Under the pieces are notes generated by a model. That model was not told where the DNA came from and ran no database searches. It was given only the letters and a program-made list of their open reading frames with translations. From positions 188,160-252,159 of the forward strand of contig NZ_GG692710.1 of the NCBI RefSeq assembly GCF_000156175.1: a DNA stretch of 64,000 bases, in the 5' to 3' direction. This document shows, piece after piece, positions 22,313 to 62,535 of the stretch (its first letter is position 1; each line of letters opens with the position of its first letter). A program made the position numbers and the translations under genes. Origin of the DNA: Collinsella intestinalis DSM 13280. GTDB lineage: Bacteria > Actinomycetota > Coriobacteriia > Coriobacteriales > Coriobacteriaceae.

Positions 22313-23593
22313 ATGGCCGAGCATATCGGAACCACGTGCGTGCAGGGCGGCTACCGTCCCGGTGACGCGGAGCCCCGTCAGGTGCCCATCTATCAGTCCA
22401 CCACCTGGAAGTACGACACCTCCGAGCACATGGGCAAACTGTTCGATCTCGAGGAATCGGGTTATTTCTACACCCGCCTTCAGAATCCCACCAACGATGC
22501 CGTCGCGGCCAAGATCTGCGAGCTCGAGGGCGGCACCGCCGCCATGTTGACGAGCTCCGGTCAGGCCGCGAACTTCTTCGCCGTCTTCAATATCGCCGGG
22601 GCGGGCGATCACGTGGTGGCGAGCTCGGCCATCTACGGGGGCAGCTACAATCTGCTCGTCCACACCATGCGCCGCATGGGCCTGGAGTGCACCTTTGTCG
22701 CCCCCAACGCGACCGATGAGGAGCTCGAGGCGGCCTTCCGCCCCAACACCAAGTGCGTCTTCGGCGAGACCATCGCCAATCCGGCACTCGCCGTGCTCGA
22801 CATCGAGCGTTTCGCCGCCGCCGCGCATGCCCATGGCGTGCCGCTGATCGTGGACAACACGTTCCCCACGCCCGTCAATTGCCGTCCCATTGAGTGGGGC
22901 GCCGATATCGTGACGCACTCCACTACCAAGTACATGGACGGTCACGGCGCGGCCGTGGGCGGTGCCATCGTGGACTCCGGTCGCTTCGACTGGACTGCGC
23001 ACGCCGATAAGTTCCCCGGTCTCACCACCCCCGACGAGTCGTATCACGGCGTCGTCTACACCGAGCGCTTCGGTCTCGAGGGTGCCTTCATCACCAAGGC
23101 GACCGCCCAGCTCATGCGCGACCTCGGCTCCATCCAGAGCCCCCAAAACGCCTACCTGCTGAATCTCGGTCTGGAGAGCCTGCATGTGCGCATGCCCCAA
23201 CACTGCAAGAACGGTCAGGCCATGGCCGAGTTCCTCGCCGGGCACCCCGCCGTGCGCTTCGTGCGCTACCCCGGTCTTCCCGGTGACGAGTATTACGAGC
23301 TCGCGCAGAAGTACCTGCCGAACGGCTCCTGCGGCGTGGTGAGCTTCGGCTTCAACGGTGGGCGCGAGGCGGCCGAGCAGTTCATGAAGAGCCTCAAGAT
23401 CGCGCAGATCGCCACGCACGTGGCCGATGCCCGCACCTGCTGCCTGCATCCGGCCAATGCCACGCACCGTCAGATGAACGACGCCGAGCTCGAGGCCTGC
23501 GGCATCGCCCCCGATATGGTGCGTCTGTCGTGCGGTATCGAGAGCACTGATGATCTGATCGCGGATGTCGAGCAGGCGCTCGCCGGTCTGTAA
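22313..23593 (+). CDS. metY: O-acetylhomoserine sulfhydrylase-type PLP enzyme
   Basis: PLP-dependent enzyme of the Cys/Met metabolism family; most likely makes homocysteine from O-acetylhomoserine and sulfide, though methionine gamma-lyase activity is possible. The 426-residue product contains the phosphate-binding SSGQAAN (about residue 82), SSAIYGGSYNLL, VDNTF (about 181) and STTKYMDGHG with catalytic Lys206, plus the C-terminal VRLSCGIESTDDLIADVEQAL. The ATG at 22313 has GAAGGAGAG at 4-12 bases upstream; an earlier ATG at 22295 does not. No SAM or other riboswitch is evident upstream. Next gene starts 10 bases later. Confidence 0.85.
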   Translation: MAEHIGTTCVQGGYRPGDAEPRQVPIYQSTTWKYDTSEHMGKLFDLEESGYFYTRLQNPTNDAVAAKICELEGGTAAMLTSSGQAANFFAVFNIAGAGDHVVASSAIYGGSYNLLVHTMRRMGLECTFVAPNATDEELEAAFRPNTKCVFGETIANPALAVLDIERFAAAAHAHGVPLIVDNTFPTPVNCRPIEWGADIVTHSTTKYMDGHGAAVGGAIVDSGRFDWTAHADKFPGLTTPDESYHGVVYTERFGLEGAFITKATAQLMRDLGSIQSPQNAYLLNLGLESLHVRMPQHCKNGQAMAEFLAGHPAVRFVRYPGLPGDEYYELAQKYLPNGSCGVVSFGFNGGREAAEQFMKSLKIAQIATHVADARTCCLHPANATHRQMNDAELEACGIAPDMVRLSCGIESTDDLIADVEQALAGL

Positions 23594-56072: not shown

Positions 56073-56176
56073 CGTGCTTCTTGGCGCTCTTCTGGATTGG
56101 AGGCGCAATTGCGCGGGCAAACGGGTACACTGGAAAAGTTACAGAGGTAATGCACCGTATCGGAAAGGTTCTAGAT

Positions 56177-57937
56177 ATGAAGGCACTGTACAACGACGGC
56201 TCCGTGGCCGAGGTTGAGGCCGACGAGGCCCAGCACGTCATCCGCCATTCCGCCGCCCACATCATGGCCCAGGCCATCAAGCACCTCTACCCCGAGGCCG
56301 ACTTCGCCTACGGTCCCGCGACCGATAACGGCTTCTATTATGACGTCGACCTCGGCGATAAGAAGATCTCCGAGGACGATCTGCCCACCATCGAGGCCGA
56401 GATGAAGAAGATCGTCAAGGAGAACCTTAAGTTCCAGGTCTTCGAGCTGCCTCGCGAGGAGGCCATCGCCCTCATGGAGGAGCGCGGTGAGAAGTATAAG
56501 GTCGAGCACATCGGTGACCTGGCCGATGACGCTCGCATCACCTTCTACCAGCAGGGCGATTACATCGACATGTGCGTCGGACCACACCTCACTTATACCA
56601 AGGCCCTCAAGGCCTTCAAGCTCACCGGCGTGTCTGGCGCCTACTGGAAAAACGATGCCAACAACAAGATGCTCACGCGCATCAACGGCACGGCTTTCGC
56701 CACCAAGGATGAACTGGAGGCGCACCTCACCCTCCTCGAGGAGGCCAAGAAGCGTGACCATCGACGCATCGGTCGCGAGATGGACCTGTTCATGATGCGC
56801 GACGAGGCCCCCGGCTTCCCGTTCTTCCTGCCCAACGGCATGGTCCTCAAGAACACCCTGCTCGACTACTGGCGCGAGATCCATCACAAGGCTGGGTACG
56901 TCGAGATTTCCACGCCCCAGATCATGAACAAGAGCCTGTGGCTCACCTCCGGTCACTGGGACCACTACAAGGACAACATGTACTCCACGATGATCGACGA
57001 CGAGGAGTACTGCATCAAGCCCATGAACTGCCCGGGCGGTGTGCTCGTCTACAGCTCCAAGCCGCATAGCTACCGCGAGCTGCCCATCCGCGCCGGCGAG
57101 ATCGGCCTGGTGCACCGCCACGAGCTCAGGGGCGCCCTGCACGGCCTGTTCCGCGTCCGCTGCTTCAACCAGGATGACGCGCACTTGTTCGTCACGCCCG
57201 AGCAGCTGACCGACGAGATCGTGGGCGTTGTGCGCCTGATCGACTCCGTGTATCAGAAGTTCGGCTTCAAGTACCACGTTGAGCTTTCCACCCGCCCCGA
57301 GGACTCCATGGGCTCCGATGAGGACTGGGCCGCCGCCGAGGAGGGCCTCAAGGTCGCACTCGATAAGCTGGGCATGGATTACGTGGTCAACGAGGGTGAC
57401 GGCGCCTTCTACGGTCCCAAGATCGACTTCCACCTGGAGGACTCCCTCGGCCGCACCTGGCAGTGCGGTACCGTGCAGCTGGACTTCCAGATGCCGCAGA
57501 ACTTCGACCTCACCTACGTGGATGCCGACGGCGAGAAGAAACGCCCCATCATGCTGCATCGCGTGTGCTTCGGCTCCATCGAGCGCTTCATCGGCATCCT
57601 GATCGAGCATTATGCCGGCAAGTTCCCGGTTTGGCTCGCCCCCATGCAGGTCAAGGTCCTGCCCGTGTCTGAGAAGAGCCGCGACTACGCTCACCAGGTC
57701 ACCGAGCAGCTCGAGGCCGCCGGCATCCGCGTGGTGTGCGACGATCGCGACGAGAAGATCGGCTACAAGATTCGCGAGGCCCGCGGCGTCGATCGCGTGC
57801 CCTACATGCTGATCCTGGGTGAGAAGGAGGTCGAAGCCGGCAACATCTCCGTCCGCGACCGTTCCAACGAGACCGTTCCGATGGCCGTCGATGAGTTCAT
57901 TGCCAAGGTCGTTGAGGAGACCCGTACGCGCGCGTAG
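56177..57937 (+). CDS. thrS: threonyl-tRNA synthetase lacking the TGS domain
   Basis: Class II synthetase that charges tRNA-Thr. The 586-residue product starts MKALYNDGSVAEVEADE and goes straight into the N2 editing domain (HSAAHIMAQAI with HxxxH, DMCVGPHL with CxxxH), then the catalytic core (motif 2 RHELRGALHGLFRVRCF, motif 3 GSIERFIGILIEHYAG) and anticodon domain. The usual N-terminal TGS domain (about 60 residues) is missing. The ATG at 56177 has GGAAAGG at 8 bases; the frame is open to 56048 but the extra residues (LALFWIGGAIARANG) do not look like TGS. Confidence 0.95.
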   Translation: MKALYNDGSVAEVEADEAQHVIRHSAAHIMAQAIKHLYPEADFAYGPATDNGFYYDVDLGDKKISEDDLPTIEAEMKKIVKENLKFQVFELPREEAIALMEERGEKYKVEHIGDLADDARITFYQQGDYIDMCVGPHLTYTKALKAFKLTGVSGAYWKNDANNKMLTRINGTAFATKDELEAHLTLLEEAKKRDHRRIGREMDLFMMRDEAPGFPFFLPNGMVLKNTLLDYWREIHHKAGYVEISTPQIMNKSLWLTSGHWDHYKDNMYSTMIDDEEYCIKPMNCPGGVLVYSSKPHSYRELPIRAGEIGLVHRHELRGALHGLFRVRCFNQDDAHLFVTPEQLTDEIVGVVRLIDSVYQKFGFKYHVELSTRPEDSMGSDEDWAAAEEGLKVALDKLGMDYVVNEGDGAFYGPKIDFHLEDSLGRTWQCGTVQLDFQMPQNFDLTYVDADGEKKRPIMLHRVCFGSIERFIGILIEHYAGKFPVWLAPMQVKVLPVSEKSRDYAHQVTEQLEAAGIRVVCDDRDEKIGYKIREARGVDRVPYMLILGEKEVEAGNISVRDRSNETVPMAVDEFIAKVVEETRTRA

Positions 57938-57964
57938 GACGCAACCGGGTTCATCGCTATGATG

Positions 57965-58005
57965 CGCACGCCGCCTCGGGCCCCACGGGCTCGGCGCGGC
58001 GTGCG
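57965..58005 (+). terminator. hairpin terminator after thrS
   Basis: CGCACGCCGC (57965-57974) pairs perfectly with GCGGCGTGCG (57996-58005) around a GC-rich loop; TTATG follows. Confidence 0.6.
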
Positions 58006-58053
58006 TTATGCTTCGGGCCTACTGTCCAGGAGAGGAAGGGCGGTTTCAGCGTG

Positions 58054-58878
58054 ATGGCTCAACAGGAACTCGAGACCCGATATGCGCAGCTCGTTTGCGC
58101 CGAGATCGCCGTCTTCGTGTACGGCGATCGCGTTGACGAGGCGCTCGCGCGCCTTGGCGTCATGGCGGACGAAGACCGTTTGGCTGATATGGTCGGCGGC
58201 ACGGGCCTTCGCGTGGCGGATGTCCGTGCCGAGTCTCGTGAGGTTCATGCCCACAGCGGTCTTATGTGGGTTGACATCACTGTGCCGTCGCATTTCGGTT
58301 GCCATGCTTTCGAGCTTGGTGCCGACGTGCAGTGCGAGGCGCTCGACCGCGTTGCTGGCGGGTTACTCGATCGCAAGGTGGTTGCGCTTTCCGCACGTGG
58401 CGCTCGCGCGGTCGCTCGCGTGGGGGACCAGCCTTCTTGCGCGTTGGCTCAGGCCGATCTCGAGGTCATCGCCCATGGACTCGATAGCGTCTCGACGCGT
58501 ATGCAGCGCCATTTCGATCATGCCCGCGCCCTCGCTGAGTACCTTGCCTGTTGTGATGGTTTGGTCCGGGTCGATTACCCCGGTCTCGCCACACATCCCG
58601 ATCGCTCTCTGGCTGAGCGTGTGCTGCGTCACGGCTTCGGCCCCGCCGTCGATTTCGAGCTCCCTGGGGACTGGGGCGCCACGGCGGGGGATTTCATCGG
58701 GCGCTGTCGTCTCAGCGGCCGAGATTGCCACGCCGGCGGACCCCGCACGCGCCTGCATGCGCGCGATGGGTGGCAGGGGAGCGCGGTTCGCATATTCGCC
58801 GGCCTCGATGACCCCCTCGCTATAGCCGACGATCTCGATCAGGCCATGCGCTGGTTCCGCAATCCTCCGCAGCCGTAG
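58054..58878 (+). CDS. degenerate, truncated Cys/Met-metabolism PLP-fold protein lacking the catalytic lysine
   Basis: 274-residue protein whose middle and C-terminal parts match the fold of cystathionine gamma-synthase-type enzymes: HAHSGLMWVDITVPSH aligns with VDNTF, GADVQCEALDRVAGG with GAD...STTKYMDGHG, DSVSTRMQRHFDHARALAEYL and VDYPGLATHPDRSLAERV with the C-terminal domain, and VRIFAGLDDPLAIADDLDQAM with its end. The lysine that holds PLP is replaced by Arg99, and the N-terminal phosphate-binding half (about 100 residues) is absent. Likely non-catalytic; a regulatory or PLP-independent role is possible. Start GTG at 58051 or ATG at 58054 after GGAAGGG. Confidence 0.7.
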   Translation: MAQQELETRYAQLVCAEIAVFVYGDRVDEALARLGVMADEDRLADMVGGTGLRVADVRAESREVHAHSGLMWVDITVPSHFGCHAFELGADVQCEALDRVAGGLLDRKVVALSARGARAVARVGDQPSCALAQADLEVIAHGLDSVSTRMQRHFDHARALAEYLACCDGLVRVDYPGLATHPDRSLAERVLRHGFGPAVDFELPGDWGATAGDFIGRCRLSGRDCHAGGPRTRLHARDGWQGSAVRIFAGLDDPLAIADDLDQAMRWFRNPPQP

Positions 58879-58976
58879 GAGGCCATCGTGCTCATCCTGA
58901 TCGGCGTCAAGGCGTTTTTGGGGTTGTAGTTTCCCTGTCCGAGCTTTTGCCAGGAGGGCGCTCGTGCCCGAGGTGG

Positions 58977-59306
58977 CTAAAACAGCTCGGTGAGGCGCTT
59001 CGCGATCATCGCGTCGAGCTCTGCCTGGAGGGTTCGATAGGCGTGGAGGGCATGTTCGCCCTCAGGGGTGAGCACCGAGCCGCGCGCACCGTCGCGGGCG
59101 AGCAGTTCGCAGCCCAGATGCCCCTCGGCCTCGCGTACGATTCTCCACGCCTTGGAATACGCCATGCCCATGCGTTTCGCCGCACGGTTGAGCGAGCCCT
59201 CTTCGGCGACGCCCTCCAGCAGTGAGGCGCACCCGCCGCCGAAAGCACCGGGTAGGTCGCGGTCGTCGTCGGAGATGGTGAGTCGGGCGTGGGCGGAAAG
59301 CGACAT
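58977..59306 (-). CDS. ModE-type molybdate-responsive winged-helix regulator (N-terminal domain only)
   Basis: 109-residue DNA-binding protein. LLEGVAEEGSLNRAAKRMGMAYSKAWRIVREAE is the LysR/ModE-type helix-turn-helix with the ModE spelling (GS...AAK.MGMSYKxAW), followed by a wing (GSVLTPEGEHALHAYRTL). It lacks the C-terminal MOP molybdate-binding domains of E. coli ModE (262 aa), as do many single-domain ModE relatives. The ATG follows TTGGAGCCCAT. Candidate regulator of the modABC/moeA block 28 kb away (inference). Confidence 0.85.
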   Translation of the reverse strand: MSLSAHARLTISDDDRDLPGAFGGGCASLLEGVAEEGSLNRAAKRMGMAYSKAWRIVREAEGHLGCELLARDGARGSVLTPEGEHALHAYRTLQAELDAMIAKRLTELF

Positions 59307-59611: not shown

Positions 59612-61123
59612 ATGGCAACGTTTTTCCCTGGTGAATCCCATACTTTCTCTGAGTATCTGCTCGTCCCCGGATACTCCTCCGCTGAGTGCGTTCCCACGAA
59701 CGTCTCCCTCAAGACCCCGCTGACCCGCTTCAAGCGCGGCGAGGAGCCCGAGATCACGCTGAACATCCCCATGGTCTCCGCCATTATGCAGTCCGTCTCC
59801 GGCGTGGACATGGGCGTCGCCCTGGCCACCGAGGGCGGCATCTCCTTCATCTACGGTTCCCAGACCCCCGAGTCCGAGGCCGCCATGGTCAAGGCCGTCA
59901 AGGACCACAAGGCCGGTTTCGTGCAGTCCGACTCCACCCTTACGCCCGACATGACCATGGAGCAGGTCATGCAGCTCAAGGACCGCACCGGTCACTCCAC
60001 CATGCCCGTTACCGATGACGGCACCCCCACCGGCAAGCTCCTCGGCATCGTCACCAGCCGCGACTACCGCCCCAGCCGTGATGATCACTCCAAGCTCGTC
60101 TCCGAGTTCATGACCCCTCGCGCCGAGCTCATCGTGGGCGACAAGGACATCACCCTCAAGGACGCCAACGACCTCATCTGGGACAAGAAGCTCAACGCCC
60201 TGCCTGTCGTCGATGACAACGACCACCTGGTCGGCATCGTCTTCCGCAAGGATTACGACTCCCACAAGACCAACCCCAACGAGCTGCTCGATGCCAACAA
60301 GCGCTACATGGTCGGCGCGGGCATCAACACCCGTGACTACGCCGAGCGCGTGCCGCTGCTCGTCGAGGCCGGTGCCGACGTGCTGTGCATCGACTCCTCC
60401 GAGGGTTACTCCGAGTGGCAGAAGCGCACCATCGAGTGGATCCGCGAGAACTACGGCGATTCCGTCAAGGTCGGCGCGGGCAACGTCGTCGACGCCGACG
60501 GCTTCCGCTTCCTGGCCGATTGCGGTGCCGACTTCATCAAGGTCGGTATCGGCGGCGGCTCCATCTGCATCACCCGTGAGACCAAGGGCATCGGCCGTGG
60601 CCAGGCCACCGCGCTGATCGACGTCTGCCGCGCCCGCGATGAGTACTTCGAGGAGACCGGCGTCTACGTGCCCGTCTGCTCCGACGGCGGCATCGTCTAC
60701 GACTACCACATGACCCTGGCGCTCGCCATGGGTGCCGACTTCCTCATGCTCGGCCGCTATTTCGCCCGCTTCGACGAGTCCCCGACGTCCCGCGTGAACG
60801 TCAACGGCCAGTACATGAAGGAGTACTGGGGCGAGGGTTCCGCGCGCGCCCGTAACTGGCAGCGCTACGACCTGGGCGGCGCCCAGAAGCTCTCCTTCGT
60901 CGAGGGCGTCGACTCCTACGTGCCCTACGCCGGCTCCCTCAAGGACGGCGTGAACGGCACCCTGTACAAGGTCAAGTCCACCATGTGCAACTGCGGCGCG
61001 CTCTCCATCCCCGAGCTGCAGGACAAGGCCCGTCTCACCCTCGTCTCCGCCACCTCCATCGTCGAGGGCGGCGCTCACGACGTCGTGGTCAAGGACTCCC
61101 AGCAGACGGTGAGCTACAACTAA
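59612..61123 (+). CDS. guaB: IMP dehydrogenase
   Basis: Catalyses the first committed step to GMP, oxidising IMP to XMP with NAD. The 503-residue product has the CBS pair (about 95-215: [41 protein letters not shown]), the [16 protein letters not shown] segment, and the active-site loop [14 protein letters not shown] with catalytic Cys in SICITRE, followed by [14 protein letters not shown] and the flap. It lacks the common GIGPGS form, having GIGGGS, as in some IMPDH-like branches. ATG at 59612 follows GAAGGAG. Terminator at 61155. Confidence 0.95.
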
Positions 61124-61383: not shown

Positions 61384-62535
61384 GTGGATAAATTTTCTCC
61401 AAAAACAATCGAAGCGCTTGGGTATTACGTCTATATATATTCCGATCCCGTGACCAAAGTTCCTTTTTATGTTGGCAAAGGAAAGGGCAATAGGGCATTC
61501 GCTCATTTGCACGACGGTTCCGAAAGCGATAAGGCACGCAAGATTGCCGAGATACAAGCGCGTGGCAGGCAACCTCTCATCGAGATTTTGGCTTTCGGCC
61601 TTGATGAGAAGGGCGCATATAAAGTCGAGGCGGCGGCAATTGACTTACTTGGACTGAAGAATCTGACAAACAAACAGGCGGGTCATGAATCGAGCCTATA
61701 TGGGCGGATAGAGGTTTCGGAGCTCGATGCGAGGTTTGATCACGGAGAACTGACCGAGTCGGATTTTCTCGAAGATGCGGTCTTGGTCAAGGTCAACCAG
61801 CTCTACCGAAACGGAATGTCCGATTTTGAGTTGTATGAGGTAACACGAGGGTTTTGGCGTGTGGACAAAAGTAAGGTAGAGGGAATCCATCTTGCTCTGG
61901 CGGTCTATGACGGCATGGTTCTTGAAGCCTATGAAATCGCGACATGGTTGCCGGCGGGTTCGGGCATGTGTGCAGCTCGCTCGGTCAGTCAAGCCGAGTT
62001 GGCTCATCGCATGGAGTTCGTGGGGCGCGTTGCCGATCGGTGTATTAGAGATCGCTATGTCGGAAAGGGCGTCTCGGGGTTGTACGCGCCGGGGAGCGCA
62101 AATCCCATCCGCTATGTGAAGGCTGCTTATTCACGTAAGGCGCTTGCGGAGATCCACAGGGTGCTCGAGGATATCGAGTTGACAGGGGAGAAGAGAGAAT
62201 GGTGCTCAAATTTCAGCTTCTATGACCCACTGCAGGATGATCCCTACGGTCTTGAAAACAGCTTGAATGAGTTGCTGGATTTGGCCTACCGAGGAGGATT
62301 TGTCCCCGTTGACTATGAGGTTGTATATCAATCGATAGGAAAAGATGATATAGCGCTTAGAAAGGCATCCAAGAAGGAGCTTTCGAACCTGAGCGACCAC
62401 CAGCTAGTTTCGATTTTGGGTTATCAGTTTAGGGACGACCACTTCGATAATGGATCGTGGATTAGGACGTATGTGGCAAATGGATTGGCTTATCACTACT
62501 TCCATGAGCTGGCCGCGCGTTGGGGTTGCGCGTAA
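61384..62535 (+). CDS. GIY-YIG domain protein (LEM-3-like / COG3680 type) of unknown role
   Basis: 383-residue protein. The first 100 residues have a GIY-YIG nuclease-type core: YYVYIYSDPVTKVPFYVGKGKG (about 13-34), the R...H pair (NRAFAHLHDG), and the EAAAIDLLGLKNLTN part with a conserved glutamate, most like COG3680/LEM-3-type domains. The remaining 280 residues are unrecognised; they include two copies of a V.G/RYVK-like segment and a C-terminal YHYFHELAARWG. The GTG start at 61384 has no strong ribosome-binding site. Base composition is more AT-rich than the core genes, suggesting transfer. Confidence 0.7.
   Translation: MDKFSPKTIEALGYYVYIYSDPVTKVPFYVGKGKGNRAFAHLHDGSESDKARKIAEIQARGRQPLIEILAFGLDEKGAYKVEAAAIDLLGLKNLTNKQAGHESSLYGRIEVSELDARFDHGELTESDFLEDAVLVKVNQLYRNGMSDFELYEVTRGFWRVDKSKVEGIHLALAVYDGMVLEAYEIATWLPAGSGMCAARSVSQAELAHRMEFVGRVADRCIRDRYVGKGVSGLYAPGSANPIRYVKAAYSRKALAEIHRVLEDIELTGEKREWCSNFSFYDPLQDDPYGLENSLNELLDLAYRGGFVPVDYEVVYQSIGKDDIALRKASKKELSNLSDHQLVSILGYQFRDDHFDNGSWIRTYVANGLAYHYFHELAARWGCA

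What the first reader, a model, noticed from the sequence alone, without database searches (positions are those of the whole stretch)
58054..58878. PLP-fold protein with catalytic lysine replaced by arginine and phosphate-binding half missing
Alignment with the intact enzyme at 22313 puts Arg99 where the Schiff-base lysine (Lys206 there) should be, and about the first 100 residues of the fold are missing. Yet the frame is intact over 274 codons with normal codon use, so it is under selection. It may be a pseudoenzyme that regulates or pairs with a real sulfur amino-acid enzyme.
Basis: partly seen in the sequence, partly recalled or inferred. Interest (0 to 1): 0.6.

Follow-up and report, generated by a model that had tools for sequence, protein, structure and literature searches.

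The report
Dead sulfur enzyme beside thrS
This gene encodes a protein built like a vitamin-B6-dependent sulfur amino-acid enzyme that has lost the parts needed to hold the vitamin, yet related gut bacteria have kept it for a very long time, usually just behind the gene for threonyl-tRNA synthetase, so it probably has a non-enzymatic job that has not been described.

Summary
The ORF at 58054-58878 (274 aa) has the Cys/Met-metabolism (PF01053) fold; Arg99 occupies the Schiff-base lysine position and the PLP-phosphate residues are gone. Missing are a ~60-aa N-terminal arm plus a ~50-60-aa internal block, not simply the first 100 residues. It is not a private relic: 62 of 65 genomes of the window's family (Collinsella, Enorma and others) carry it, Arg is fixed in 50/50 main-group sequences, and dN/dS is 0.13-0.27. 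A sister family of the same order has Lys-less relatives, with thrS just upstream in 16 of 18 sampled genomes. All 66 form one clade (support 0.99), so the loss looks ancient. The Arg is not universal (divergent members have A, H, S, Y and others); the absence of Lys is. AlphaFold gives a confident CGL-like fold. Lengths shrink from ~370 to ~110 aa, always keeping the C-terminal core. The proposed pairing with a sulfur enzyme is disfavoured: three genomes of one genus lack every active PF01053 enzyme yet keep the gene. Best reading: an undescribed, PLP-free, thrS-linked pseudoenzyme that acts by binding; its partner is unknown.

The parts
58054..58878 (+). PLP-free Cys/Met-enzyme-fold pseudoenzyme, short form (274 aa; alternative GTG start 58051)
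   Evidence: AlphaFold pLDDT 89.1, pTM 0.84; Z 25.6 to CGL/OAH sulfhydrylase structures
58348..58350 (+). Arg99 codon, position of the Schiff-base lysine; Arg in 50/50 main-group orthologs
58345..58347 (+). Asp98 codon, where active enzymes have the PLP-phosphate Thr; Asp in 50/50 main-group and 8/13 f5/f3 sequences
58336..58338 (+). Glu95 codon, first residue of the E-x-L-D-R motif, invariant in alignments A1 and A3
58273..58275 (+). Asp74 codon, equivalent of the Asp that contacts the PLP ring nitrogen; retained in 50/50 and 12/13
58789..58791 (+). Arg246 codon, equivalent of the substrate-carboxylate Arg; retained in 50/50 and 11/13
58180..58194 (+). Junction of the internal deletion (about residues 43-47) relative to the 330-380 aa form; shared by five species
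58498..58662 (+). Most conserved core (long helix, YPGL, GFGP), the part still present in ~110-aa mini-forms
56174..57937 (+). thrS, threonyl-tRNA synthetase, upstream neighbour in most relatives
57964..58008 (+). Strong GC-rich hairpin between thrS and the gene, without a T-run behind it
   Evidence: -58.2 kcal/mol for the whole intergenic stretch, z -2.6
58977..59306 (-). ModE-like HTH protein, conserved downstream neighbour in this family (name from sequence by eye)
59612..61123 (+). IMP dehydrogenase-type gene (guaB), conserved downstream neighbour
22313..23593 (+). Active paralog, O-acetylhomoserine sulfhydrylase (TIGR01326), the reference; only full-length PF01053 enzyme found in this genome

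Best explanation
Shown: the fold is predicted to be kept; the Schiff-base lysine, the phosphate ligands and the N-terminal arm are gone; the gene is under purifying selection, nearly always present, and usually lies just behind thrS. Inferred: it does no PLP chemistry and works by binding, through its C-terminal domain, which is the most conserved part and the only part left in the shortest members. The partner is not (obligatorily) an active enzyme of its own family. Given the gene order, a role tied to threonyl-tRNA synthetase or to expression of that locus is the leading guess (about 0.25). The pseudoenzyme part alone I put at about 0.9.
For: Lys absent in all members examined: Arg in 50/50 of the main group, other residues or gaps in most of 20 divergent ones. 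N-arm Tyr/Arg, SG and Ser/Thr phosphate ligands lost. 62 of 65 family genomes carry it. thrS upstream in most family loci outside the C. aerofaciens clade and in 16 of 18 sampled sister-family loci. One clade of 66 pseudo versus 17 active sequences, support 0.99. dN/dS 0.13-0.27. Confident AlphaFold models, Z 25.6 and 32 to CGL/OAHS structures. Retained without any active sibling in three genomes of one genus. Truncation series ending at a ~110-aa C-terminal core.
Against: No biochemical data. Adjacency to thrS is not kept everywhere: in the C. aerofaciens clade and L041 the gene lies elsewhere, and it is 4.5 and 28 kb from thrS in G129 and G038. Divergence is fast, and dN/dS of mini-forms is higher (0.44-0.46). 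Three family genomes, two of them 96% and 100% complete, show no copy. Long branches and few active outgroups could inflate the single-origin support.
Confidence: 0.72

Rival explanations
1. It is a regulatory or stabilising subunit that pairs with an active sulfur amino-acid enzyme of the same fold.
For: Same fold as the enzymes. The genomes of the window's own family that were tested have at least one active PF01053 enzyme. Dead paralogs that activate live ones are known, e.g. trypanosomatid deoxyhypusine synthase (PMC3663545).
Against: G208, G238 and G222 lack any active PF01053 enzyme but keep the gene under selection. The N-terminal arm that reaches the neighbouring active site is absent. 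The active paralog lies about 35 kb away, not beside it.
Confidence: 0.1
2. It is an amino-acid sensor (threonine, homoserine or a relative) that uses the retained carboxylate Arg and feeds back on thrS.
For: The Arg that holds the substrate carboxylate in active enzymes is kept in 50/50 and 11/13, and the ring-nitrogen Asp in 50/50 and 12/13. Gene order with thrS.
Against: The Arg persists in several mini-forms that have no pocket at all, so it may be structural. Divergent members have lost it.
Confidence: 0.1
3. It is a slowly decaying paralog with no remaining function.
For: Loss of sequence from the N-terminus, fast divergence, occasional absence (G004, G059, G230) and one split copy (G084).
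Against: dN/dS 0.13-0.27 in every clade tested of the window's family, open frames in dozens of species, confident fold, retention since before two families split.
Confidence: 0.05
4. It still catalyses something, either with non-covalently held PLP or with a different chemistry.
For: The pocket Asp and Arg are retained, with a new conserved E-x-L-D-R motif.
Against: All phosphate ligands are lost, and Asp stands where the phosphate-binding Thr was. The new motif is not fully kept in the sister family, and the mini-forms lack the whole site.
Confidence: 0.03

Closest known systems
Cys/Met metabolism PLP-dependent enzymes (PF01053); nearest by profile O-acetylhomoserine sulfhydrylases 2cb1/2ctz, nearest by model CGL 8bis/2nmp and OAHS 8ovh/4kam
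   Same: Fold, order of motifs, ring-nitrogen Asp, carboxylate Arg, YPGL and GFG core
   Different: No Schiff-base Lys, no phosphate ligands, no N-terminal arm, internal deletion; shortest members keep only the C-terminal core
SPTLC1 (LCB1) of serine palmitoyltransferase, a fold-type I subunit without the lysine (lysine loss from general knowledge; SPTLC1/SPTLC2 core heterodimer in PMC10196870)
   Same: PLP-enzyme fold without the catalytic lysine, kept by selection
   Different: SPTLC1 works with its active sibling; here genomes exist with no active sibling, and the N-terminal arm is gone
Catalytically dead paralog of trypanosomatid deoxyhypusine synthase (PMC3663545)
   Same: Dead paralog retained by selection
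   Different: Not a PLP enzyme; it activates its live paralog in a heterotetramer, which the co-occurrence data here argue against

Membership tests
PF01053 Cys/Met metabolism PLP-dependent enzyme | Profile score above the curated cut-off | tested here: met
   58.1 bits against 27; long form 94.9 bits, mini-form 27.6 bits
PF01053 Cys/Met metabolism PLP-dependent enzyme | Fold of the family | tested here: met
   AlphaFold pLDDT 89.1; Z 25.6, rmsd 2.5-2.8 over 264-272 residues
PF01053 Cys/Met metabolism PLP-dependent enzyme | Schiff-base lysine | tested here: not met
   Arg99 here; Arg in 50/50, never Lys in any group
PF01053 Cys/Met metabolism PLP-dependent enzyme | PLP-phosphate ligands (N-arm Tyr/Arg, SG motif, Ser/Thr before Lys) | tested here: not met
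   Arm absent 50/50; Ser of SG replaced 50/50 (Ala 47, Gly 2, Val 1); Thr replaced by Asp 50/50
PF01053 Cys/Met metabolism PLP-dependent enzyme | Asp contacting the PLP ring nitrogen and Arg for the substrate carboxylate | tested here: met
   Asp 50/50, Arg 50/50 in the main group
PF01053 Cys/Met metabolism PLP-dependent enzyme | PLP-dependent activity | not testable with these tools
   Needs purified protein
Pseudoenzyme | Catalytic residues lost across orthologs, not in one genome | tested here: met
Pseudoenzyme | Maintained by purifying selection | tested here: met
   dN/dS 0.13-0.27
Pseudoenzyme | No catalysis, with a non-catalytic function | not testable with these tools
   Needs biochemistry and a knockout
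Dead subunit of a heteromeric PLP enzyme (SPTLC1-like) | Always co-occurs with an active sibling | tested here: not met
   G208, G238, G222 have no full-length PF01053 match but keep the gene

The most novel reading that the evidence does not exclude
A dead cystathionine-type enzyme was converted, before two bacterial families split, into a dedicated partner or regulator of threonyl-tRNA synthetase, and is being whittled down in some lineages to a ~110-aa C-terminal domain that carries the whole function.
Probability: 0.22. Interest if true: 0.72.

Novelty: new variant of a known kind. Interest (0 to 1): 0.52.

Why it matters
Bacterial pseudoenzymes of the PLP fold-type I class are little described, and no paper on this one was found in the library searched. 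The family is a natural series from nearly full-length to domain-only proteins, all without the lysine, in common gut bacteria. It lets one ask which part of an enzyme fold survives when its chemistry is lost, and what that part then does. The members tested score above the PF01053 cut-off, so annotation by profile alone would call them sulfur amino-acid enzymes and mislead metabolic models.

Tried and rejected
Viral contigs: no relatives. Rfam around thrS: no T-box or other RNA family. Promoter/terminator scan: nothing on the coding strand. Papers: no description found of the family or the locus. Considered and rejected: frameshifted active enzyme (the long-form relatives are also dead); single-genome relic; assembly artefact (intact in many independent genomes).

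Full report
What was claimed and what is there. The ORF 58054-58878 is intact (274 codons from ATG, 275 from GTG 58051) and follows thrS by 113 bases. It matches only PF01053, Cys/Met metabolism PLP-dependent enzyme, at 58.1 bits against a cut-off of 27; its best NCBIfam match, far below that model's cut-off, is a cystathionine gamma-lyase. BLASTP with the O-acetylhomoserine sulfhydrylase at 22313 gives 23% identity, E 4e-11. Arg99 sits on that enzyme's Schiff-base lysine in the family alignment and on the Lys of ESLTK in structure 2cb1.

What is missing. The longer relatives (330-380 aa) align to active enzymes from about residue 60 onwards, so the N-terminal arm, which in active enzymes carries the Tyr and Arg that hold the cofactor phosphate of the neighbouring subunit (general knowledge of the family), is absent in all. 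The window protein has in addition lost an internal block of ~50-60 residues. Five species share this short form and group together. The SG phosphate motif and the Ser/Thr before the lysine are also replaced. The Thr has become Asp in 50 of 50, while the ring-nitrogen Asp and the substrate-carboxylate Arg are kept in 50 of 50.

Is it fixed? With a family profile, 62 of 65 genomes of the window's family carry a member. Record titles of the matched contigs include Collinsella, Enorma, Candidatus Coprousia and Candidatus Limicola. All 50 main-group sequences have Arg. Seven divergent members of the same family have lost the Arg too, and none has Lys. The constant is the loss of Lys; the Arg is a lineage feature.

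Selection. Pairwise Nei-Gojobori dN/dS is 0.22 in the short-form species, 0.19 in the C. aerofaciens group, 0.27 in the C. tanakaei group and 0.13 in the Coprousia group, lower in the C-terminal core than in the N-terminal part in each. thrS of the same genomes gives 0.05-0.11 where measured. The gene is constrained, though less than a housekeeping synthetase.

How old. A search of the order found short Lys-less relatives in a second family, called f5 by the tool. In 16 of 18 sampled f5 genomes thrS lies just upstream, in most directly adjacent and in a few 0.8-1.7 kb away, as it does in most loci of the window's family outside the C. aerofaciens clade. In a FastTree tree of the shared region, all 66 pseudoenzymes group together with support 0.99 against 17 active enzymes. 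The lysine was therefore probably lost once, before the two families split, with the caveat that long branches and few active outgroups may favour this result.

Structure. AlphaFold2 gives mean pLDDT 89.1 and pTM 0.84 for the window protein, and 87.3 and 0.87 for a 363-aa relative. They align to cystathionine gamma-lyase and O-acetylhomoserine sulfhydrylase structures with Z 25.6 (264-272 residues) and Z 32 (311-320 residues). This is a compact, plausible fold, not debris.

Partner test. If the protein served an active sulfur enzyme of its own family, it should not occur without one. In one f5 genus, G208 (96% complete), G238 (97%) and G222 (99%) have no full-length PF01053 enzyme, yet all three carry the gene directly behind thrS, with dN/dS 0.15 between two of them. 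This argues against an obligatory pairing with an active sibling; it does not exclude an optional one elsewhere.

Shrinkage. Lengths fall from ~370 to ~275, ~250, ~210 and finally ~110 aa. Mini-forms downstream of thrS in G210, G147, G120 and G188, and a remnant in G046, keep only the C-terminal core, roughly SDAAQVVASYLxCHPxVxxVRYPGLxxDPSFxxAxxxLxGGFGPxVD. One mini-form still scores 27.6 bits to PF01053, profile 255-293. dN/dS of mini-forms is higher (0.44-0.46), so some may be decaying. The carboxylate Arg persists in several mini-forms that lack a pocket, which makes a structural role likelier than substrate sensing.

Locus. In the window's family the usual order is zinc-ribbon-like protein, thrS, pseudoenzyme, mntP, ModE-like protein on the other strand, guaB; the window genome lacks mntP at that place. 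In the C. aerofaciens clade the gene mostly sits behind a sucrose-hydrolase-like gene instead of thrS. A strong hairpin without a T-run lies between thrS and the gene here. Co-transcription is therefore unproven, and adjacency is ancestral rather than obligatory.

Mechanism. Shown: no lysine, no phosphate ligands, preserved predicted fold, purifying selection, deep conservation, thrS linkage, independence from active siblings in one genus. Inferred: no PLP chemistry, action by binding through the C-terminal core. Guess: the partner is ThrRS or something expressed with it. Novelty: pseudoenzymes are a known kind; this is an undescribed variant as far as the searched library goes.

Noticed in passing
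L157 3245-4105 (genome G041, family f8): A 287-aa Lys-less PF01053 relative (31.9 bits) directly behind a much more distant thrS (48% identity): either a still older occurrence or an independent one.
   Followed up: partly
L140 (genome G036, family f3): Lys-less PF01053 relative (57 bits) on a contig other than that of thrS; at the base of the pseudoenzyme clade in the tree.
   Followed up: partly
G208, G238, G222 (genus g86): A genus apparently without any active PF01053 Cys/Met enzyme in three genomes, which suggests dependence on external sulfur amino acids.
   Followed up: partly
L128 (genome G084): Copy split by a TAA into two ORFs of 239 and 238 aa, either decay or an assembly error in an incomplete genome.
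   Followed up: no
58879-58976: mntP (manganese efflux pump), present between the pseudoenzyme and the ModE-like gene in most relatives, is missing at this place in the window genome and in L039.
   Followed up: partly
61384-62535 +: 383-aa ORF whose start (YYVYIYSDPVTKVPFYVGKGKGNRAFAHL) looks by eye like a GIY-YIG nuclease domain; not tested.
   Followed up: no
L191, L192, L143, L188: Some sister-family genomes carry a thrS 83-89% identical to the window's while others have one near 70%, so thrS, with or without its neighbour, may have been exchanged between lineages.
   Followed up: no
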